From assembly GCA_017599285.1 (NCBI GenBank), contig JAGFXX010000001.1, positions 2,942,501-3,006,500 of the forward strand: DNA of 64,000 bases, given 5' to 3'. The position numbers were made by a program, and so were the translations under genes. Below the pieces are notes generated by a model, which was given only the letters and a program-made list of their open reading frames with translations, was not told where the DNA came from and made no database searches. The stretch's first letter is position 1. Every line of letters begins with the position of its first letter. Source of the stretch: Cereibacter azotoformans (GTDB taxonomy: Bacteria; Pseudomonadota; Alphaproteobacteria; Rhodobacterales; Rhodobacteraceae). This document shows positions 66-8,076 of the stretch, one piece after another.

Positions 66-305
66 TCACGCCGCGTCCCCTTCGATTTGCAGGAGGGCTT
101 GGTCATGATCGGCGACACAAACGTCCGAGTTCGCAGCCATGAAGGCGCGCAGGCGATCCACGACCTTCATGGTCGGGCTGGACTTGCCGTCCTTCCAATC
201 CTGCCATTGTCCCCACTTCGCGTTGATGGCCTCGCGCAACAGCTTCTGCGGACTGATCCCGCACGCCGTGCAATGGGCTTCGATGTCTGAGATGAGCTGT
301 TCCAT
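66..305 (-). CDS. Cro-like small DNA-binding protein
   Basis: A 79-residue protein whose central part (about residues 17-55, with ISPQKLLREAI and SSPTMKVVDRLRAF) reads like the helix-turn-helix of phage Cro/CI-type proteins. It diverges from an S24-peptidase repressor, the usual position of a cro-like gene. I chose the ATG at 305 because the frame further upstream runs through the operators and gives no domain. No Shine-Dalgarno precedes this ATG, and the nearest promoter-like boxes (TTGATT near 341-336) would leave almost no leader, so the message may be leaderless. The family call rests on pattern and context only. Confidence 0.62.
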   Translation of the reverse strand: MEQLISDIEAHCTACGISPQKLLREAINAKWGQWQDWKDGKSSPTMKVVDRLRAFMAANSDVCVADHDQALLQIEGDAA

Positions 306-315
306 GGCGGCGAAT

Positions 316-391
316 ATGGGGGAACTCCCCCACATAATCAAGGGGAACTTCCCCATGGATCGGAGCGAGGGTATGGGGCACTTTCCCCATA
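316..391. promoter_or_regulatory. Three phage-type operators between divergent regulators
   Basis: Three G-run/C-run dyads lie here. O1 at 317-332 has perfect 7-bp arms TGGGGGA/TCCCCCA around 2 bp. O2 at 342-354 has arms GGGGAA/TTCCCC around 1 bp. O3 at 372-391 has perfect 7-bp arms TATGGGG/CCCCATA around 6 bp. In O1 and O3 the outer G-to-C distance is 14 bp. They sit between the Cro-like gene and the repressor and overlap the repressor start, so autoregulation is the natural reading. A CATAAT hexamer at 333-338 could be a plus-strand -10. Confidence 0.7.
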
Positions 392-1059
392 TGCAGAAGA
401 AGACCCTGGACGCCTTCGTGCGTGGCCTGCAGATCGTCATGGAGGCTGAGGGCATCAAGATGAAGCCGCTCTCGGTGGCTGCAGGCATGGGCGAGTCCGG
501 AGTGCGAGATCTGATCCGCAACGAGTCGTCGCCCAAGGTCGCCAACGCCTACGCCTTGGCCAGAGAGCTTGGGCGAACGGTGGATGAGATCATCCAGATC
601 GGCATGACGGGAGATCTGAATGCGCGCCCGGATCGCGCGCCCATTGCGGTCGCCGGGTGCGTGGGTGCGGGTGCGCGGGTCGATCTCCTGGACGCCTACG
701 AGAAGGGCGATGGCATGTATCACGTCGCCCGCCCCCCGCAGCTGAAGCCGCACGGCATAGTCGCGGTGGAGGTTAAGGGCGATAGCATGATGCCGCTTTA
801 CCGCCCTGGGTCCGTGCTTTTCTACACGCGTGCCGCTGCCGAGGGCGTGCCGATCGAGGCACTCAACACGCCTTGTGTCTGCGAGGATACGGACGGAAGG
901 GCTTGGCTCAAGGTAGTCAAGGTGGGCAGTCAGGAGGGCACTTTCAGCCTCCTGTCGCTCAACCCGGATGCGGACAACATGCATGGCGTCCGGTTGAAGT
1001 GGGCAGCGCCAGTGCTCATGACGCTATCGCCCGACTATGTGGAGCGGGTTTACGTCTGA
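373..1059 (+). CDS. LexA/CI-like phage repressor with S24 peptidase domain
   Basis: A 228-residue repressor. An N-terminal helix-turn-helix covers about residues 10-75 (KPLSVAAGMGESGVRDLIRN). The C-terminal S24 self-cleavage domain has the nucleophile in VKGDSMMP (Ser138), a general-base Lys in GRAWLKVVK (Lys180), and a likely Ala-Gly cleavage bond in VGAGARV (99-100). It probably represses the gene run downstream and itself through the nearby G-run/C-run operators, and would be inactivated by RecA-stimulated self-cleavage. ATG 373 has GGAG seven bases upstream. ATG 391 (MQKKTLDAF) is the alternative, and operator O3 covers both. The S24 call is firm; the start is less so. Confidence 0.85.
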   Translation: MGHFPHMQKKTLDAFVRGLQIVMEAEGIKMKPLSVAAGMGESGVRDLIRNESSPKVANAYALARELGRTVDEIIQIGMTGDLNARPDRAPIAVAGCVGAGARVDLLDAYEKGDGMYHVARPPQLKPHGIVAVEVKGDSMMPLYRPGSVLFYTRAAAEGVPIEALNTPCVCEDTDGRAWLKVVKVGSQEGTFSLLSLNPDADNMHGVRLKWAAPVLMTLSPDYVERVYV

Positions 1060-2436: not shown

Positions 2437-2616
2437 ATGAAGAGCAAATCCTCCATCCTGTCCGCATGGCGGCAGGTCCTGTCGGAGACGGCGCGGTATC
2501 TTCCGTTCGGCGGTGCCATGCCCGAGGACCGGCCGGGCCTCTATCGCCGTGTCGCGCGAGATTGCGGCGTGCCCATCGAGGCAGTGCGCCGGGCCGTGGA
2601 GGCCTCCGGTGGCTGA
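2437..2616 (+). CDS. Hypothetical 59-residue protein
   Basis: A 59-residue basic protein beginning MKSKSSILSAWRQVLSETA and ending AVRRAVEASGG. The C-terminal half (GLYRRVARDCGVPIEAVRRAV) has the look of a short helix-turn-helix. It follows a 98-bp gap after the GapR-like gene in which I see no signal. GCGGAG lies about seven bases before the ATG. It overlaps the methyltransferase-like gene by eight bases. No family recognised. Confidence 0.55.
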   Translation: MKSKSSILSAWRQVLSETARYLPFGGAMPEDRPGLYRRVARDCGVPIEAVRRAVEASGG

Positions 2617-3331
2617 GCCCCTGCGCATCCTGATCGGCTGCGAGACCTCGGGCGTGATGCGCCGGGCCTTTGCTGCCCGCGGGCATGACGTCTGGTCCTG
2701 CGACCTCCTGGCGGCAGAGGACCGCTCGAACCGCCACATCGTCGGCGATGTGCGCGACCATCTGACCGACGGCTGGGATCTGCTGATCGTGGCGCACCCG
2801 CCCTGCACGCGGCTCTGCAACAGCGGCGTCCGGTGGCTGCATGAGCCCTCGAAGCGCCTCCCCGAGACCTATGCTGCGGCAGAGCGGGAGGCTTTCGCCC
2901 GGATGGGTCGCGAGGAGCGGCTGGCCTTCCTGTGGGCTGACCTCGACCGCGGGGCTGCGCTGTTTGCGGCCTGCTGGCAGGCGCCGGCGCCGCGCGTGGC
3001 CGTCGAGAACCCGGTGATGAACCCGCACGCCCGGGCCCGCCTGCCTGCCGACCTGCCACGGCCGCAGACGGTGCAACCCTGGTGGTTCGGCGAGCCCTTC
3101 TTCAAGGCGACGAGCTTCTATCTGCGCGGCCTGCCGCGGCTCGCCGCCACCAACCGGCTGACGCCGCCCCGGCCCGGGACGCCCGAGCACAAGAGCTGGT
3201 CGGCCGTCCACCGCGCGCCGCCGGGGCCCGACCGCTGGAAATTCCGCAGCCGCACCTTCGAGGGCGTGGCCGAAGCCTGCGCCGACCAGTGGGGCGGGTG
3301 GGCCGAGGGGGAGGCTGCGGCATGTGGGTGA
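2609..3331 (+). CDS. Orphan C5-methyltransferase-like phage protein
   Basis: A 240-residue protein with a SAM-binding start (RILIGCETSGVMRRAF, residues 6-21), an acidic strand end (VWSCDL) and a PPC-type catalytic loop HPPCTRLCNSG (Cys66), followed by VENPVMN. This is the compact methyltransferase-like family common in phages, which lacks the long target-recognition region of true cytosine methylases. GTG 2609 is preceded by GGAGG (2598-2602), six bases away, and overlaps the upstream stop. The ATG at 2513 would lie inside the upstream gene in another frame. No restriction partner is adjacent, so self-protection of phage DNA or base modification fits better than restriction-modification (inference). 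Confidence 0.75.
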   Translation: MAEPLRILIGCETSGVMRRAFAARGHDVWSCDLLAAEDRSNRHIVGDVRDHLTDGWDLLIVAHPPCTRLCNSGVRWLHEPSKRLPETYAAAEREAFARMGREERLAFLWADLDRGAALFAACWQAPAPRVAVENPVMNPHARARLPADLPRPQTVQPWWFGEPFFKATSFYLRGLPRLAATNRLTPPRPGTPEHKSWSAVHRAPPGPDRWKFRSRTFEGVAEACADQWGGWAEGEAAACG

Positions 3332-3369
3332 GACTGCCGAACGCGAACGAGGAACACGAGGAGGTCTAG
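3322..3369 (+). CDS. Possible 15-residue peptide
   Basis: The short frame MWVRLPNANEEHEEV has GGGGGAGG (3307-3314) seven bases before its ATG. It overlaps the end of the methyltransferase-like gene by ten bases and stops three bases before the next gene. It may only serve to keep ribosomes on the message. No independent support. Confidence 0.2.
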   Translation: MWVRLPNANEEHEEV

Positions 3370-3372
3370 GAC

Positions 3373-3555
3373 ATGCGATCAGCCACCGTCACGAAGACCG
3401 CGATCAGCCGGGCCATTGCCGCTTGGAAGGAATGCGGGCTGAAGGTCGGGGGGATGGAGATCACCAAGGACGGCACCATCCGCATCACGGCGGCAATGGA
3501 CGAACCGGCGCCCGTGGCTCAGCGTGGTGGGCCGAAGCAGTGGCCGACCAGGTGA
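3373..3555 (+). CDS. Small protein preceding the integrase
   Basis: A 60-residue basic protein. Residues 1-42 (MRSATVTKTAISRAIAAWK... then GMEITKDGTIRITAA) resemble the short proteins often found immediately upstream of integrases in Rhodobacterales elements: one helix and then a beta hairpin with an I-x-x-D-G-T-I core. GAGGAGG (3358-3364) is eight bases before the ATG. Its stop overlaps the integrase start as GTGA (3552-3555), which indicates coupling. It could be an excision-type accessory protein, but no motif proves that. Confidence 0.6.
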   Translation: MRSATVTKTAISRAIAAWKECGLKVGGMEITKDGTIRITAAMDEPAPVAQRGGPKQWPTR

Positions 3556-4649
3556 TCGACGTGAAGCACAACTTCCCGGGCCTCCTGCGCGAGAAGCTCC
3601 CGTCCGGGGCCATCCGTTTCCGTGTCCGGGCCGAGGGCAACAAGCGGCTCCGCACCGCCATTCCGGTGGGGCCCGACCATGCTGACTTCTATCACCACTA
3701 TACGGCCGCCCGAGAGGGGCGGCGCTGGGAGGGGCCGCCGCCCGAGAGCAGCGCAGTCGCCCATTCCATCCAGTGGCTGGTGGACAAGTATCTCGCGCAC
3801 CTCGGGCGGCTGGTTGACGCCGGACAGGCCTCGAAGCTGACGCTCCAGCAGCGGCGATCCCAGCTGCGCAGGCTCTGCGCCATGACCACCGACGACGGCG
3901 GCGGGATCTACGGCGAATATGACATGTGCGCGCCGCGGAGCGCCTTCATCGCTGCCCGGGACCAGTGGCGCGACAAGCCCGGCGAGGCGAACAACCTCAT
4001 CAAGTCCGTCTCGGCCATGTATCGCTGGGCGATCGAGGAGGCGGAGCTCCTCGCCGAGAACCCGGTCAAGGGCATCAAGAAGCTCGCCATGAAGGGGGAG
4101 GGGGCGGCCCCCTGGACGCCCGAGGATCTGAAGAAGTTCCGGGACAGGCATCCTCTTGGCACCACGGCGCATCTGTGGCTCACGCTGCAGATGTTCACGG
4201 CCTGCCGGATCGACGACGCGCGCAAGCTCGGCCGCCGGCACGAGGTTGAGAGGGCAGGGGAGCTGTGGCTGGACTTCCAGCCCAGCAAGAAGGGAAGCGC
4301 GCCGGTGTCGATCCCGATGATGGCGCCCCTTTTGCGGGCCGTCCGGGCGCAGAAGGTGCAGGGGGCGACCTATCTTCTCACAGACTACGGCAAGCCCTTC
4401 AGCACGGCCGAGAGCCTGCGCAACCGCGTCCGGAAATGGTGCGCGGCGGCCGGCATTGAAGGGAAGTCCTCGCACGGCATCCGGAAGGCCGTGGCCGAGC
4501 TCCTGGCGGAGGCCGGCTGCAGCCAGCACCAGATCATGGCGATCATGGCGCACACCCAGGCGAAGACGTCGGAGATCTACACTAAGGGCGCGCAGCGGCG
4601 GGTACTGGCGGCCGATGCCTTGGCCGCTCTCAGCGACATGGAGTGGTGA
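3552..4649 (+). CDS. int: Tyrosine-type site-specific integrase
   Basis: A 365-residue tyrosine recombinase. It has an N-terminal arm/core-binding region with a SAM-like helical domain (about 70-160), then a complete catalytic set: Arg219 (TACRIDDAR), Lys246/247 (SKKGS), His308 and Arg311 (HGIRK), His334 (MAHTQ) and the nucleophile Tyr343 (SEIYTKG). It should catalyse integration and excision of this island at the tRNA 3.3 kb downstream. GTG 3552 overlaps the previous stop (GTGA); GTG 3540 is the alternative. The longer frame back to 3324 is out of place because it would overlap the upstream gene. All catalytic residues are present, so the enzyme looks intact. Confidence 0.9.
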   Translation: MIDVKHNFPGLLREKLPSGAIRFRVRAEGNKRLRTAIPVGPDHADFYHHYTAAREGRRWEGPPPESSAVAHSIQWLVDKYLAHLGRLVDAGQASKLTLQQRRSQLRRLCAMTTDDGGGIYGEYDMCAPRSAFIAARDQWRDKPGEANNLIKSVSAMYRWAIEEAELLAENPVKGIKKLAMKGEGAAPWTPEDLKKFRDRHPLGTTAHLWLTLQMFTACRIDDARKLGRRHEVERAGELWLDFQPSKKGSAPVSIPMMAPLLRAVRAQKVQGATYLLTDYGKPFSTAESLRNRVRKWCAAAGIEGKSSHGIRKAVAELLAEAGCSQHQIMAIMAHTQAKTSEIYTKGAQRRVLAADALAALSDMEW

Positions 4650-4985
4650 TCGGGGAGACGACCCGGCCCCTTGCGCCAGGCGATGGTGCTGCTTGGAGAC
4701 CATGGCCCTGTGGGCACAATGTGACCTGTTGAACAGCTGCCCCCGAAGGACTGCTGTCTGCTAAGCGCAGGGAGCGGACGTCGCGGATTGGAAGGCCGCC
4801 CTGTGCGACCCGATGCACCCGGCCCGGACCGGTCGTTCGCCGAACAGGGCGTCGCTGCGGCGCGGCTACCCGGAAGCGGCCTTTGGTCGATGCTTCCGCC
4901 AGCGACTTATGGCGAGCCGGTCGTAGACAATAGAACCTGATCGTATAGGCTTGAACAGGGAGCATCGATTAAAGGATGATCAACT
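4650..4985. other. Intergenic region after the integrase
   Basis: 336 bp without a supported gene. It contains the ribosome site of the next gene (AAAGGA at 4971-4976). I found no convincing terminator, tRNA, attachment repeat or well-spaced promoter. Base composition becomes more AT-rich from about 4920, marking the change into the following two-gene module. Confidence 0.5.
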
Positions 4986-6215
4986 TTGGCCAAAAGTTTG
5001 CTAAGCGTCACGTTGAGGGCTATGAAGGCCGCGGAGAGAAACCGTGTTCGTCACGCAAAAGCTGCCGAGCGTCGTGACCTCGCCGAGCGGAGAGAGGTGG
5101 CACGACAGGCGAAGGATTATGCAGCCAAGGTTCGCAAAGCAGAGATCGCGGATGAGCGCGATCGGAAAGCTTACGAGAAGGCCGTAAGGGCTGCGCATGC
5201 CGCAGCCCAGCAAGCCGAGGTCGACCGAATGAATTCGGAGATCGACGCGGTCTTCGACGAGCTGGAAGGGCTTCTGGCTGCCACGATCAACGTTGACGAC
5301 CATATAGATCTCGAGAAGCTTCGAAAGCCTTTGGATACGCCATTCGACATGCCCGACTTGGAGATTCCGTTAGTCGCGCCGAGACGGCCAAATTATCCAC
5401 CCGAGCCTAAATATGTTGAACCGGCTAAGCCTAAAGGTTTCTTCGGCAAGAAGCGGAAGCTTGAGGAGGCGCGCGCAATAGCGCAGCAAGCTTACGAGAT
5501 GCAAAAGGCGGAATGGGGCCGACGGATTTCGGCCTTAGAAGACCGATATGCAAACGAGTTGGCTGCCCATGAACAGGCAGAGGCCAGAAGAGTTGAGACC
5601 CTGGCCGCAGAGAAACATCGGTTTCGACAAGAACTGGAGGACCACAATAAGTCTATCGACCAGTTCATTACGAACCTATCATATGGAGACGCTGAGGCGG
5701 TTCAGGAGTACATCTCGCTGGTCGTAGAGAATTCCACCTATCCCGATCACTTCATAGTCACGCATGAATTCTCGTTCGCGCCTGAGACAGCCGAGCTTCG
5801 GATGCGCGTGACGATCCCGGCCCCAGACAGCTTCCCAGCAATTAAGGCGTACAAATACGTAAGGACGTCCGATGAGATACGCGATGTCCCGATGTCCCAA
5901 GCTGAGATCAATAAAAGGTACTCCAGCGTCTTACATCAGGTCGCGATCAGGTCGCTCCACGAGGTGTTCGAGGCGGACAGGCGCGGGCTTATCCGAACGA
6001 TCTCGCTCGAGGTCGGCACGAAGGCACGGCATCCTGCGACGGGACGGCTCGATTTCCTTCCTTTCGTGGGCGTCAGCGCCGAGCGTGACAGTTTCACGGA
6101 GTTCGATCTTTCTGGCCTCGTCCCGCTCGCAACTTTGAAACATCTCGGTGCTGCGATCTCCAGAGACCCCGTCGCCCTCGTCGCCGCCGACGTGACTGGC
6201 GTGCGCAAGTCATGA
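4986..6215 (+). CDS. Coiled-coil protein, first gene of a putative defence pair
   Basis: A 409-residue cytoplasmic protein. Residues about 10-85 are a highly charged coiled coil (KAAERNRVRHAKAAERR...). A Pro-rich linker follows (PRRPNYPPEPKYVEPAKP, 128-145), then a second coiled coil (about 148-225) and a globular C-terminal domain with FPAIKAYKYVRTSDEI and RSLHEVFEADRRGLI. From memory, this C-terminal pattern resembles the N-terminal part of actinobacterial Mrr-type restriction proteins, but no nuclease domain follows here. A TTG start is used, nine bases after AAAGGA; ATG 5022 is the alternative. It overlaps the next gene by four bases (ATGA). Codon use is more AT-rich than in its neighbours, suggesting separate acquisition. 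Molecular function is unknown. Confidence 0.7.
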   Translation: MAKSLLSVTLRAMKAAERNRVRHAKAAERRDLAERREVARQAKDYAAKVRKAEIADERDRKAYEKAVRAAHAAAQQAEVDRMNSEIDAVFDELEGLLAATINVDDHIDLEKLRKPLDTPFDMPDLEIPLVAPRRPNYPPEPKYVEPAKPKGFFGKKRKLEEARAIAQQAYEMQKAEWGRRISALEDRYANELAAHEQAEARRVETLAAEKHRFRQELEDHNKSIDQFITNLSYGDAEAVQEYISLVVENSTYPDHFIVTHEFSFAPETAELRMRVTIPAPDSFPAIKAYKYVRTSDEIRDVPMSQAEINKRYSSVLHQVAIRSLHEVFEADRRGLIRTISLEVGTKARHPATGRLDFLPFVGVSAERDSFTEFDLSGLVPLATLKHLGAAISRDPVALVAADVTGVRKS

Positions 6216-7528
6216 CGGACGGGCGGACGTTCAATCCACCGCCGGGGTGGCCCAAGCCGCCTAAGGGGTGGACGCCACCCAAGGACTGGAAGCCCGACCC
6301 AAACTGGCCTGCCATGCCTGAGGGATGGGTACTCTGGGTATCCGACGCTGGCGACACGCCTCAGGCGGCGCCAGTGATGGAGAGGATTAATGATTCGACT
6401 GAACCGGAAGCTCCACACGACGAACTCTTCGCATTGAAGGCCGAGTTGGCGAGGCTACGGGCGCAATTGGCGGCCAATCCATCGACGGAAACCATCTCTT
6501 TCGATGACCAGAAGATCCTGCAGGATATCGGTATTTACCGATACCATCATCCCCTCGAGAACGCCGCAGGATATAGAGCCGAACTCGAACGGATCGAGAT
6601 TGAGGTGGCCAAGGTCGTGCGGGAGCAAGAGGCCATCGAGGTCTCGTCTACGTTTACGTTCGAGAACTCACTGGCGGCGGGCCGGAAGCTGTCGAACGAC
6701 CTCGGGAAGCTGATGCTTCGTGCCTACAACGCCGAATGCGATAACTGCATCCGTTCACTTCGTACCGGGAATGCCGAAGTCGCCAAAAAGCGGATAGAAG
6801 CGTCGCGCCAGGCGATCGCGAAGCTGGGCAAGATCATGGAGATGCAGATCAGCGCGCGATACCACGATCTCCGAGTGCGGGAGATCGAACTGACGGCCGA
6901 CTGGCTAATGAAGAAGCAGGAAGAGAAGGAAGCGGAAAGGGAAAACAGGGCTAGACTTCGCGAGGAGAAACGCGTGGAAAGGGAGTTCGCTGAGGAGAGA
7001 GAGAGGCTGGCCAAGGAGAAGCAGCACCTCGAGAACGCCATTGAGGCCCTTCGGGAAAAGGGAGAGAGAAACCCTGACCTAGAGGCGAACCTTTTGGCGT
7101 TGGAGGAAGCCATAAAGCAAAACGAATATCGGCTGGCAAATATCAGGTCCGGCTATGTTTACGTCATCTCGAACCGGGGGGCATTCGGCACCAACGTCGT
7201 CAAGATCGGTTTAACAAGACGGCTTGAACCGAATGATCGCATCTCGGAGCTCGGCGGCGCATCCGTTCCCTTTCGATTCGATGTTCATGCCCTTTTCTTT
7301 TCCGAAGACGCCGTGTCATTAGAGAATGAGCTTCATAACCACTTTCGCGACAGAGCTCTGAATGCAGTGAATGCCCGCAAGGAGTTCTTCTTTGCGACAC
7401 CTGCCGAGGTTCGTGACGTCCTCATGGACAAGGTCGGAAGTCTTCTCGAGTTCTCGGAGGTAGGAGAAGCGCTGGAATTTCATCAGTCAAGAAAATATTG
7501 GCCGGAACGACCGGAAGAACTGAAATAG
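6212..7528 (+). CDS. DUF4041-like coiled-coil GIY-YIG (T5orf172) nuclease
   Basis: A 438-residue protein in four parts. Residues 8-43 are a Trp/Pro repeat (PPGWPKPPKGW, PPKDWKPDPNWP, GWVLWV) like the N-terminal motif seen in many actinobacterial proteins. A short coiled coil covers 70-88. A DUF4041-like helical region runs from about 97 to 310, ending in a long charged coiled coil. A C-terminal GIY-YIG domain of the T5orf172/MUG113 kind covers 314-404: YVYVISN (315-321), KIGLTR (331-336), Arg343, and Glu371/Glu373 in LENELHNHF. It is coupled to the upstream coiled-coil gene by ATGA. Proteins of this type occur in phages and in defence islands. Nuclease activity is inferred from the motif; the biological role is not established. 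Confidence 0.8.
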   Translation: MTDGRTFNPPPGWPKPPKGWTPPKDWKPDPNWPAMPEGWVLWVSDAGDTPQAAPVMERINDSTEPEAPHDELFALKAELARLRAQLAANPSTETISFDDQKILQDIGIYRYHHPLENAAGYRAELERIEIEVAKVVREQEAIEVSSTFTFENSLAAGRKLSNDLGKLMLRAYNAECDNCIRSLRTGNAEVAKKRIEASRQAIAKLGKIMEMQISARYHDLRVREIELTADWLMKKQEEKEAERENRARLREEKRVEREFAEERERLAKEKQHLENAIEALREKGERNPDLEANLLALEEAIKQNEYRLANIRSGYVYVISNRGAFGTNVVKIGLTRRLEPNDRISELGGASVPFRFDVHALFFSEDAVSLENELHNHFRDRALNAVNARKEFFFATPAEVRDVLMDKVGSLLEFSEVGEALEFHQSRKYWPERPEELK

Positions 7529-8000
7529 ATAATGGCTCTGGGCTGAAAGTCCTGGAAGGCATGAATCTAAATCATATGGCCGCTCGTGCCGTGTATGGTA
7601 GTCTGCATGTATGTAAACCCTAAAAAGTGGCGCCTTCGAATGGCTGCTTCTGCGCTTGGCGCACCTCAAGTGCCGGATGCCGCGAATGTCAGGTCTCCGC
7701 CCGGTCATGCCTACACCGGACCTCGCGCTGCGCTCCGCACGACCGACTGCTCAGGGCTGAAGCGGTCATCATGCTTCGAGCCTCATGGATCTCCCGAGCC
7801 CTGTACGCTGCGCGGGGCGGCCGAAGAGGCGCCGCCTTCTCGACCTGCGCATGGTCCGGTCTCGCCCACCTTGAGGGTGCGGACCGTGTCCTCAAGGGAG
7901 CCGCTCGATTGGCCGGAACCTCGCGTCTGCCGCTACAAGTGTCCCACGGTCCCGAAAAATGGGACACCCTCCGTTGTTTTGGCAGGACAGAATGCTGGAA
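7529..8000. other. Gene-free region between island genes and tRNA
   Basis: 472 bp. Short frames exist on both strands but have Arg/Pro/Ser-rich translations without ribosome sites, and I do not believe any of them. The only structure I see is the inverted repeat at 7939-7967. This stretch should contain the island-side attachment region next to the tRNA 3' end. Confidence 0.5.
7939..7967. repeat. Inverted repeat near the tRNA
   Basis: GTGTCCCA (7939-7946) and TGGGACAC (7960-7967) are perfect 8-bp arms around 13 bp. It lies 34 bp from the encoded CCA end of the tRNA, on the island side. It may be a transcription stop for the tRNA or the last island gene, or an integrase-binding site. No T-run clearly supports a terminator. 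Confidence 0.5.
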
Positions 8001-8076
8001 TGGTAGGCCCGGAGGGACTCGAACCCCCAACCAAGGCGTTATGAGCGCCCTGCTCTGACCATTGAGCTACAGGCCC
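8001..8076 (-). tRNA. tRNA with CAU anticodon (Ile2 more likely than Met)
   Basis: A 76-nt cloverleaf with encoded CCA (8001-8003). The acceptor is GGGCCTG pairing with CGGGCCT (one G-U at each of positions 1 and 6). The D arm begins TAGCTCA, the anticodon loop is CTCATAA on a GGCG/CGCC stem, and the T arm is GGGGG-TTCGAGT-CCCTC. The anticodon is CAU. It lacks the initiator features. The AGAGCAG and CTTGGTT context is closer to the lysidine-modified tRNA-Ile2 than to elongator Met, but sequence alone does not settle this. Its 3' end faces the integrase-bearing island, as expected for a tRNA-integrated element. Confidence 0.88.

What the first reader, a model, noticed from the sequence alone, without database searches (positions are those of the whole stretch)
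4986..7528. Two-gene coiled-coil / GIY-YIG module with the look of an undescribed defence system
Two coupled genes (ATGA overlap) sit inside an integrase-bearing island beside a tRNA and are more AT-rich than everything around them. The second fuses a Trp/Pro N-terminal repeat, a DUF4041-like coiled coil and a GIY-YIG T5orf172-type domain with its KIGLTR, Arg and Glu motifs. The first has two coiled coils and a C-terminal domain that, from memory, resembles the N-terminal part of actinobacterial Mrr-type restriction proteins but carries no nuclease. A sensor/scaffold plus separate nuclease is a plausible arrangement. The pair, rather than each part, appears unnamed to me.
Basis: partly seen in the sequence, partly recalled or inferred. 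Interest (0 to 1): 0.8.

Follow-up and report, generated by a model that had tools for sequence, protein, structure and literature searches.

The report
Two-gene SNIPE-type anti-phage nuclease pair
A prophage carries two coupled genes, a DNA-cutting protein of the known SNIPE (PD-λ-1) anti-phage family and a partner made from the recognition half of a restriction enzyme without its cutting half, which looks like a two-part version of a defence described so far as one gene.

Summary
Gene A (4986-6215) and gene B (6212-7528) overlap by ATGA, are AT-rich, and lie between integrase and tRNA-Met at the end of a ~37 kb prophage.

B alone is not new: it is a homologue of SNIPE/PD-λ-1 (DUF4041 plus GIY-YIG; PADLOC E 2e-98), a proven anti-phage nuclease. 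The pair looks new. A matches, almost end to end, the N-terminal part of Mrr-type restriction enzymes, without the nuclease.

Among A relatives I read, 40 of 40 long ones carry Mrr_cat and have no B beside them. All 22 close nuclease-less ones have B downstream (21 open, one cut beside a transposase) and end in a G(V/I)R tail. Paired A's form one clade, paired B's form one clade, and the trees agree. Three more distant nuclease-less relatives have no B. In one genome an A core fused to TerD follows a SNIPE that also carries TerD, a second, separate link.

Best reading: a split SNIPE in which A is a trans-acting adaptor that places or licenses the B nuclease at incoming phage DNA. Linkage is shown; binding, direction of control and defence are inferred. 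New variant of a known kind.

The parts
4986..6215 (+). Gene A, 409 aa, TTG start: nuclease-less relative of the N-terminal part of Mrr-type (type IV) restriction enzymes; two long helices, an alpha/beta domain and a GVRKS tail
6212..7528 (+). Gene B, 438 aa: SNIPE/PD-λ-1 homologue (Trp/Pro repeat, DUF4041, long helix, GIY-YIG); catalytic Glu is E371 (aligns with SNIPE E414)
6230..6340 (+). Trp/Pro (WP) repeat at the N terminus of B, about residues 7-43
6707..6874 (+). DUF4041 domain of B, residues 166-221
7151..7423 (+). GIY-YIG (T5orf172/MUG113) nuclease domain of B, residues 314-404
3324..4649 (+). Tyrosine integrase of the carrying prophage (first possible start)
139..1059 (+). CI-like repressor (HTH_3 plus peptidase S24) of the carrying prophage (first possible start)
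7998..8016 (.). Candidate attachment site: 19 bp (18 identical) at the 3' end of tRNA-Met, repeated at genome C1:2913189-2913207, about 37.3 kb away
   Evidence: BLAST E 0.024, so it rests also on its place at the tRNA end and near the IMG/VR border
8001..8076 (-). tRNA-Met (cat), probable integration target

Best explanation
A and B are one two-protein anti-phage unit, a split variant of SNIPE/PD-λ-1, carried as prophage cargo. B is the effector: its DUF4041 binds DNA and probably a phage entry protein, and its GIY-YIG domain cuts the entering phage DNA, as in E. coli SNIPE. A is the adaptor. It does in trans what the variable N-terminal region is thought to do in one-gene SNIPE: it places or licenses B at the right DNA, probably near the membrane, through its coiled coils and its conserved G(V/I)R tail. 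In related proteins the same A core is joined in cis to an Mrr nuclease, so the A core looks like a recognition module that has been coupled to two unrelated nucleases. Shown here: homologies, conserved catalytic residues, strict linkage within the clade, joint descent, absence of the Mrr domain, a common tail, prophage context. Inferred: A-B binding, A as activator rather than brake, action at DNA entry, and defence itself.
For: B: PADLOC PD-Lambda-1 E 2.3e-98; DUF4041 and GIY-YIG; KIG(L/M)TRR, R343 and E371 kept in the 11 paired B's aligned, and E371 aligns with residue E414 of a 500-aa phage protein annotated PD-lambda-1, the number of SNIPE's catalytic Glu. Linkage: 22 of 22 close nuclease-less A's have B directly downstream, 21 open and 1 (G547) reduced to 105 aa beside a transposase gene; 40 of 40 long A relatives carry Mrr_cat, 0 of 22 split ones do, and 0 of the 40 have B in the stretch read. 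Paired A's are one clade, 98/100 (19 of 60 rows), paired B's one clade, 99/94 (21 of 52 rows); distances agree, Mantel r 0.847, 0 of 5000 permutations (18 loci). All 22 split A's end in G(V/I)R plus 0-5 residues; a chance-like G(V/I)R stands near the core end in 1 of 40 fused ones. A second link: G321 has TerD-SNIPE followed by A core-TerD. WP-repeat ORFs: 25 of 25 have a predicted membrane segment against 13 of 52 other ORFs (with caveats in the report). For SNIPE the DUF4041, nuclease and membrane roles are experimental (PMC13190303, abstract, passages and section 9).
Against: No experiment, and no complex could be modelled with these tools. The pairing needs one gain on the trees, so 22 of 22 is one coupling that was kept, not 22 events. 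Three more distant nuclease-less A relatives (L117, L118 and the Shewanella DUF4236 protein L003) have no B. In the order of Arthrobacter genome G061, 37 of 396 genomes have a strong B match (E <= 1e-99) and only 4 of these have a split A beside it, so most SNIPE relatives do without A. Lack of a membrane segment does not set paired B's apart: 0 of 20 scored paired ones, but also only 1 of 24 unpaired ones, has one by hydropathy. Two paired B's (L018, L059) show no WP repeat and L020 only a remnant. The window's host genome shows no other WP protein. A's C-terminal domain has no convincing solved relative.
Confidence: 0.55

Rival explanations
1. A is a brake (antitoxin-like): SNIPE without its membrane anchor is toxic, and A holds the anchorless B inactive until phage arrives.
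For: SNIPE lacking its membrane segment is highly toxic through its nuclease (PMC13190303, passages); B has no membrane segment by hydropathy; the two genes are tightly coupled with A first.
Against: 23 of 24 unpaired SNIPE relatives scored also lack a membrane segment and have no A beside them. In L016, L017 and L019, and in the IMG/VR copy of this prophage, A is frameshifted while B is open, which would be hard to survive if A were an essential brake; but the two indels examined (L016, IMG/VR copy) are single bases in short homopolymers and may be sequencing errors, so this is weak.
Confidence: 0.25
2. B alone is a one-gene SNIPE and A is an accessory that only widens the phage range, or a separate defence protein that happens to travel with it.
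For: E. coli SNIPE is one gene (PMC13190303); most SNIPE relatives have no A; A cores also occur without SNIPE.
Against: Adjacency in 22 of 22, joint clades, correlated distances and a tail peculiar to the paired A's.
Confidence: 0.15
3. The pair is a prophage gene set for something other than defence, such as DNA processing or superinfection control of the phage itself.
For: It sits in a prophage between integrase and attachment site; GIY-YIG enzymes also serve mobile elements (recalled).
Against: Relatives lie on plasmids by their record titles (Kocuria L002, Arthrobacter L016); members of B's family protect against phages in E. coli and S. thermophilus (PMC13190303, PMC12322248, passages).
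Confidence: 0.05

Closest known systems
SNIPE (PD-λ-1), E. coli (PMC13190303)
   Same: DUF4041, long helix, GIY-YIG with the same catalytic Glu; the PADLOC PD-Lambda-1 models match. Prophage setting is common for the screen that found it (12 of its 21 systems in intact prophages, PMC9519451, passages).
   Different: SNIPE is one gene with an N-terminal membrane segment. Here B has a WP repeat instead, and a second gene, A, goes with it in every paired-clade locus read. 33% identity to a PD-lambda-1 record where aligned.
Mrr-type (type IV) restriction enzymes, PADLOC mREase_IV
   Same: A aligns with profile positions 22-377, coiled coils and alpha/beta domain included.
   Different: A has no Mrr_cat nuclease (0 of 22 split A's; 40 of 40 fused relatives have it) and has its own G(V/I)R tail.
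   Same: A core and SNIPE encoded side by side.
   Different: Order is B then A, both carry TerD, and neither lies in the paired clades.
CoCoNuTs, coiled-coil nuclease tandems (PMC11090510, search listing only)
   Same: Coiled-coil protein coupled with a nuclease in a type IV-like setting.
   Different: By the listing they are a branch of McrBC systems; no GTPase domain was found in A or B.

Membership tests
SNIPE / PD-λ-1 (gene B) | DUF4041 domain | tested here: met
   Pfam PF13250 E 2.6e-22, residues 166-221
SNIPE / PD-λ-1 (gene B) | C-terminal GIY-YIG nuclease with the catalytic Glu (E414 in SNIPE) | tested here: met
   PF10544/PF13455; E371 aligns with residue 414 of a 500-aa record annotated PD-lambda-1; that this record equals the SNIPE of the paper was not tested
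SNIPE / PD-λ-1 (gene B) | Matches the PADLOC PD-Lambda-1 models over most of the protein | tested here: met
   E 2.3e-98, residues 69-429
SNIPE / PD-λ-1 (gene B) | N-terminal membrane segment (predicted in 66% of 474 homologues in PMC13190303, so typical, not defining) | tested here: not met
   No 19-residue window reaches 1.6 on Kyte-Doolittle; maximum 0.78
SNIPE / PD-λ-1 (the pair) | Works as a single gene | tested here: inconclusive
   A is adjacent in all 22 loci read of this clade; whether B works alone needs experiment
SNIPE / PD-λ-1 (gene B) | Anti-phage activity at genome injection | not testable with these tools
   Experimental for E. coli SNIPE (PMC13190303)
Mrr-type IV restriction enzyme (gene A) | N-terminal region homologous to mREase_IV | tested here: met
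   PDLC03663 E 9.9e-27, profile 22-377 of 544
Mrr-type IV restriction enzyme (gene A) | Mrr_cat PD-(D/E)XK nuclease domain | tested here: not met
   No Mrr_cat in A or in any of 22 split A's (for L016, L017, L019 only the open C-terminal part was scanned), so A is not an Mrr enzyme
Toxin-antitoxin pair | One protein toxic alone and neutralised by the other | not testable with these tools
   Only indirect arguments, see the first rival

The most novel reading that the evidence does not exclude
The A core is a general recognition module for foreign or entering DNA that nature has coupled to two unrelated nucleases: in cis to PD-(D/E)XK (Mrr_cat), and in trans, at least twice, to GIY-YIG SNIPE (WP type and TerD type). 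A and B then form a two-protein entry-sensing nuclease in which recognition and cutting are separated, and finding what A sees would also explain a large group of uncharacterised Mrr-type enzymes.
Probability: 0.35. Interest if true: 0.75.

Novelty: new variant of a known kind. Interest (0 to 1): 0.6.

Why it matters
SNIPE was described as a single membrane nuclease whose variable N terminus may decide where it acts. A clade in which that role seems to be a separate, conserved protein makes the adaptor testable on its own, and the same protein core is the N-terminal half of the 40 Mrr-type proteins read here. It would also add a defined two-gene subtype to defence-finding tools: the PADLOC models match B as PD-Lambda-1 and give A only a partial match to a restriction enzyme model.

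Tried and rejected
1. Idea that A replaces a membrane segment that unpaired SNIPEs keep: not supported, since unpaired relatives also lack one (1 of 24 has one; crude hydropathy only; among 4 unpaired plasmid ones, L005-L008, one, L007, has segments).

2. Idea that A supplies in trans a coiled coil that unpaired B's have in cis: unpaired B's have an LFGARK-like motif before a long coil (18 of 29; paired 0 of 20) and several A's have FG(R/K)K at the start of the second helix. Suggestive, but the motif is short and coils compare badly; not used as evidence.

3. A as a recent truncation or decayed Mrr enzyme: rejected by the single well-supported clade and the common tail.

4. Fold of A: Foldseek gave nothing at E <= 0.001; VIA-align 2 gave Z 7.4 to CamS-type sex-pheromone precursors (95-103 residues, rmsd 2.8-3.1), inside the noise range the tool states; no sequence relative in PDB at E <= 0.2. 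Fold search with the B model (mean pLDDT 79) was filled by coiled coils and told nothing. B's GIY-YIG assignment rests on Pfam and motifs.

5. A relatives in viruses: none in 50,697 phage records at E <= 1e-3; in IMG/VR only a near-identical copy of this prophage.

6. Neighbours of paired loci: of 10 large flanking ORFs given to Pfam, 5 had a match (a SNF2 helicase, a TerD protein, an AAA/TniB protein, a lamin-tail/phytase-like and a beta-helix protein); of 10 given to PADLOC (9 of them the same), one matched (DpdE-like SNF2 helicase, L124). No common theme; not systematic.

Rows set aside or not read: of 21 plasmid records with an A match I opened 3 (L002, L003, L004). L022/L050 (one locus) is cut by a contig end. 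Of, 28 weaker hits were not read (open frames 501-805 aa by the table). The genome search scored only the best few candidates per genome, so misses are possible. Frameshifted L016, L017, L019 were counted for linkage and tail but left out of the A tree. The flank read was 5 kb for loci (less at contig ends) and about 1.5 kb for most loci.

Full report
WHAT IS THERE. Gene A (4986-6215, 409 aa) and gene B (6212-7528, 438 aa) overlap by ATGA. They lie in a low-GC stretch (0.56-0.60) between a tyrosine integrase (3324-4649) and tRNA-Met (8001-8076). A 19-bp repeat, 18 identical, links the tRNA 3' end (7998-8016) to genome C1:2913189-2913207, 37.3 kb away (BLAST E 0.024). Of 10 ORFs tested in that stretch, 7 match phage families (terminase, portal, head protease, major head, major tail, tail fibre, endolysin); the others gave a methyltransferase, an unknown family and nothing. 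IMG/VR holds a 35.4-kb viral contig whose end is the stop codon of B. So the pair is cargo at the integrase end of a prophage.

GENE B. Pfam finds DUF4041 and T5orf172/MUG113, PADLOC finds PD-Lambda-1 at E 2.3e-98 over residues 69-429, PHROGs a family of unknown function, phrog_1847. PD-λ-1 came from a functional screen of E. coli and was then studied as SNIPE, a membrane-anchored nuclease that cuts phage DNA during injection; 34% of 474 homologues lack a predicted membrane segment, and SNIPE without its own is toxic (PMC13190303, abstract, passages and section 9). The screen paper (PMC9519451) I saw in passages that do not name PD-λ-1. One of two tested streptococcal PD-Lambda-1 homologues also protects (PMC12322248, passages). 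E371 here aligns with residue 414 of a phage protein annotated PD-lambda-1. B has no membrane segment by hydropathy and begins with a Trp/Pro repeat.

GENE A. No Pfam family reaches its cut-off. PADLOC's mREase_IV model aligns from 22 to 377 of 544, that is, without the C-terminal part. The AlphaFold2 model of A (53-row alignment) has mean pLDDT 93 and pTM 0.74: two long helices, a short helix, and a b-b-b-b-a-b-b domain. No solved structure is clearly related.

THE PAIR ELSEWHERE. The Kocuria rosea plasmid NZ_CP126484 has the same two genes side by side, 47% and 62% identical. Draws of whole genomes gave a match in 9 of 396 from the order of Arthrobacter genome G061, 55 of 394 from its class, 3 of 337 from the window's own class, itself included, and 1 of 61, itself, among relatives. 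Loci read fall in two groups. First, 22 in which A ends within 5 aa of the core: window, Kocuria, L011-L020, and genomes G250, G072, G445, G665, G607, G679, G681, G637, G547, G508. In 21 of 22 an open B follows directly; in G547 B is reduced to 105 aa holding the WP repeat, and a DDE transposase gene stands next to it. Second, 40 with a C-terminal extension of more than 150 aa: all 40 have Mrr_cat, and 0 of 40 have B in the stretch read. Outside both groups are L051 (A core-TerD), L003 (DUF4236-A core, Shewanella), L117 and L118 (distant, no nuclease found, no B; L117 stands among transposase genes and may be a truncated fusion), and L022/L050 (cut by a contig end). Of 37 of 396 genomes in G061's order with a strong B match (E <= 1e-99), only G061, G250, G072 and G445 have a split A beside it, plus G321 in the other form; G061 was the centre of the draw and chosen because it has the pair.

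DESCENT. In a tree of 60 A cores the 19 paired ones form one clade (98/100). In a tree of 52 B cores the 21 paired ones form one clade (99/94). Distances over 18 shared loci correlate at 0.847, none of 5000 permutations as high; this also reflects shared host descent. In both trees the window sits with L011, a metagenome bin titled Gammaproteobacteria, inside a clade otherwise drawn from Actinomycetota, which points to transfer as a unit (a mis-binned contig is possible for L011). All 22 split A's end in G(V/I)R plus 0-5 residues; the 10 fused proteins printed (9 Mrr, 1 TerD) run on as VRPVVDFD or similar, and 1 of 40 (L031) has a G(V/I)R near that place.

A SECOND LINK. In G321 a SNIPE with an N-terminal TerD domain is followed by an A core with a C-terminal TerD domain. 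Neither protein lies in the paired clades (both are long branches), so A core and SNIPE met at least twice by this evidence. Another A core carries Mrr_cat and TerD together (L080). TerD-SNIPEs without A exist too (L104, L109).

WP REPEAT. I took 20 of the 25 best WP-only hits. In these stretches 25 of 25 WP ORFs have a predicted membrane segment against 13 of 52 other ORFs. Several of the 25 are alike and probably orthologues, and the two sets were cut differently (WP ORFs from 100 aa; controls from 200 aa with high GC3, some perhaps not genes), so the contrast is rough. It suggests, and does not show, that the repeat works next to membranes. The window's host genome shows no other such protein.

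HOW IT PROBABLY WORKS. B cuts, A guides or licenses. The main alternative is that A is a brake. The choice between the two rests on weak indirect points: frameshifted A with open B in L016, L017, L019 and the IMG/VR copy, and unpaired anchorless B's without A. The two indels looked at closely are one-base changes in short homopolymers that may be sequencing errors.

NOVELTY. B is a known kind. I did not find the pair described, which cover open-access full text only; subscription papers, bioRxiv and the SNIPE paper's supplementary tables were not seen. New variant of a known kind, interest 0.6.

Noticed in passing
L119 (G321), 3122-6738 minus: TerD-DUF4041-GIY-YIG protein followed by an A core-TerD fusion: a second form of A core plus SNIPE.
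   Followed up: partly
window 6230-6340 and L131-L150: The Trp/Pro repeat (FNPPPGWPxPPxGWxPPxxWxPDPxWP) opens many proteins in genomes of Arthrobacter's order; 25 of 25 ORFs examined have a predicted membrane segment. Pfam gave it no name in B.
   Followed up: partly
L003, 4773-5981: Shewanella plasmid: DUF4236-A core protein in a run of genes annotated ATP-grasp, phosphoribosyltransferase, StiP family and HpcH/HpaI, a tellurite-resistance-like setting (that label is recalled).
   Followed up: no
L116 (G547), 3779-4958: B of a paired locus is reduced to its WP part, next to a DDE transposase gene, while A stays open.
   Followed up: yes
window about 5742; L010: The IMG/VR copy of this prophage has one C less in a C run inside A, which breaks the frame; the window's copy is open.
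   Followed up: yes
L021: The Actinoplanes-type A-Mrr fusion scores weakly on Mrr_cat (E 2e-6) and seems to lack the QxK motif (YAERG by eye), so its nuclease may be dead.
   Followed up: no
L002 and L007: Kocuria rosea RP1 carries the A-B pair on one plasmid and a separate SNIPE relative with predicted membrane segments on another.
   Followed up: no
window 2513-3331: Prophage DNA methyltransferase-like gene (phrog_757) just upstream of the integrase.
   Followed up: no
L026, 4272-7898; L080, 1459-3654: A core-Mrr proteins with a further domain: CHAT protease in L026, TerD in L080.
   Followed up: partly
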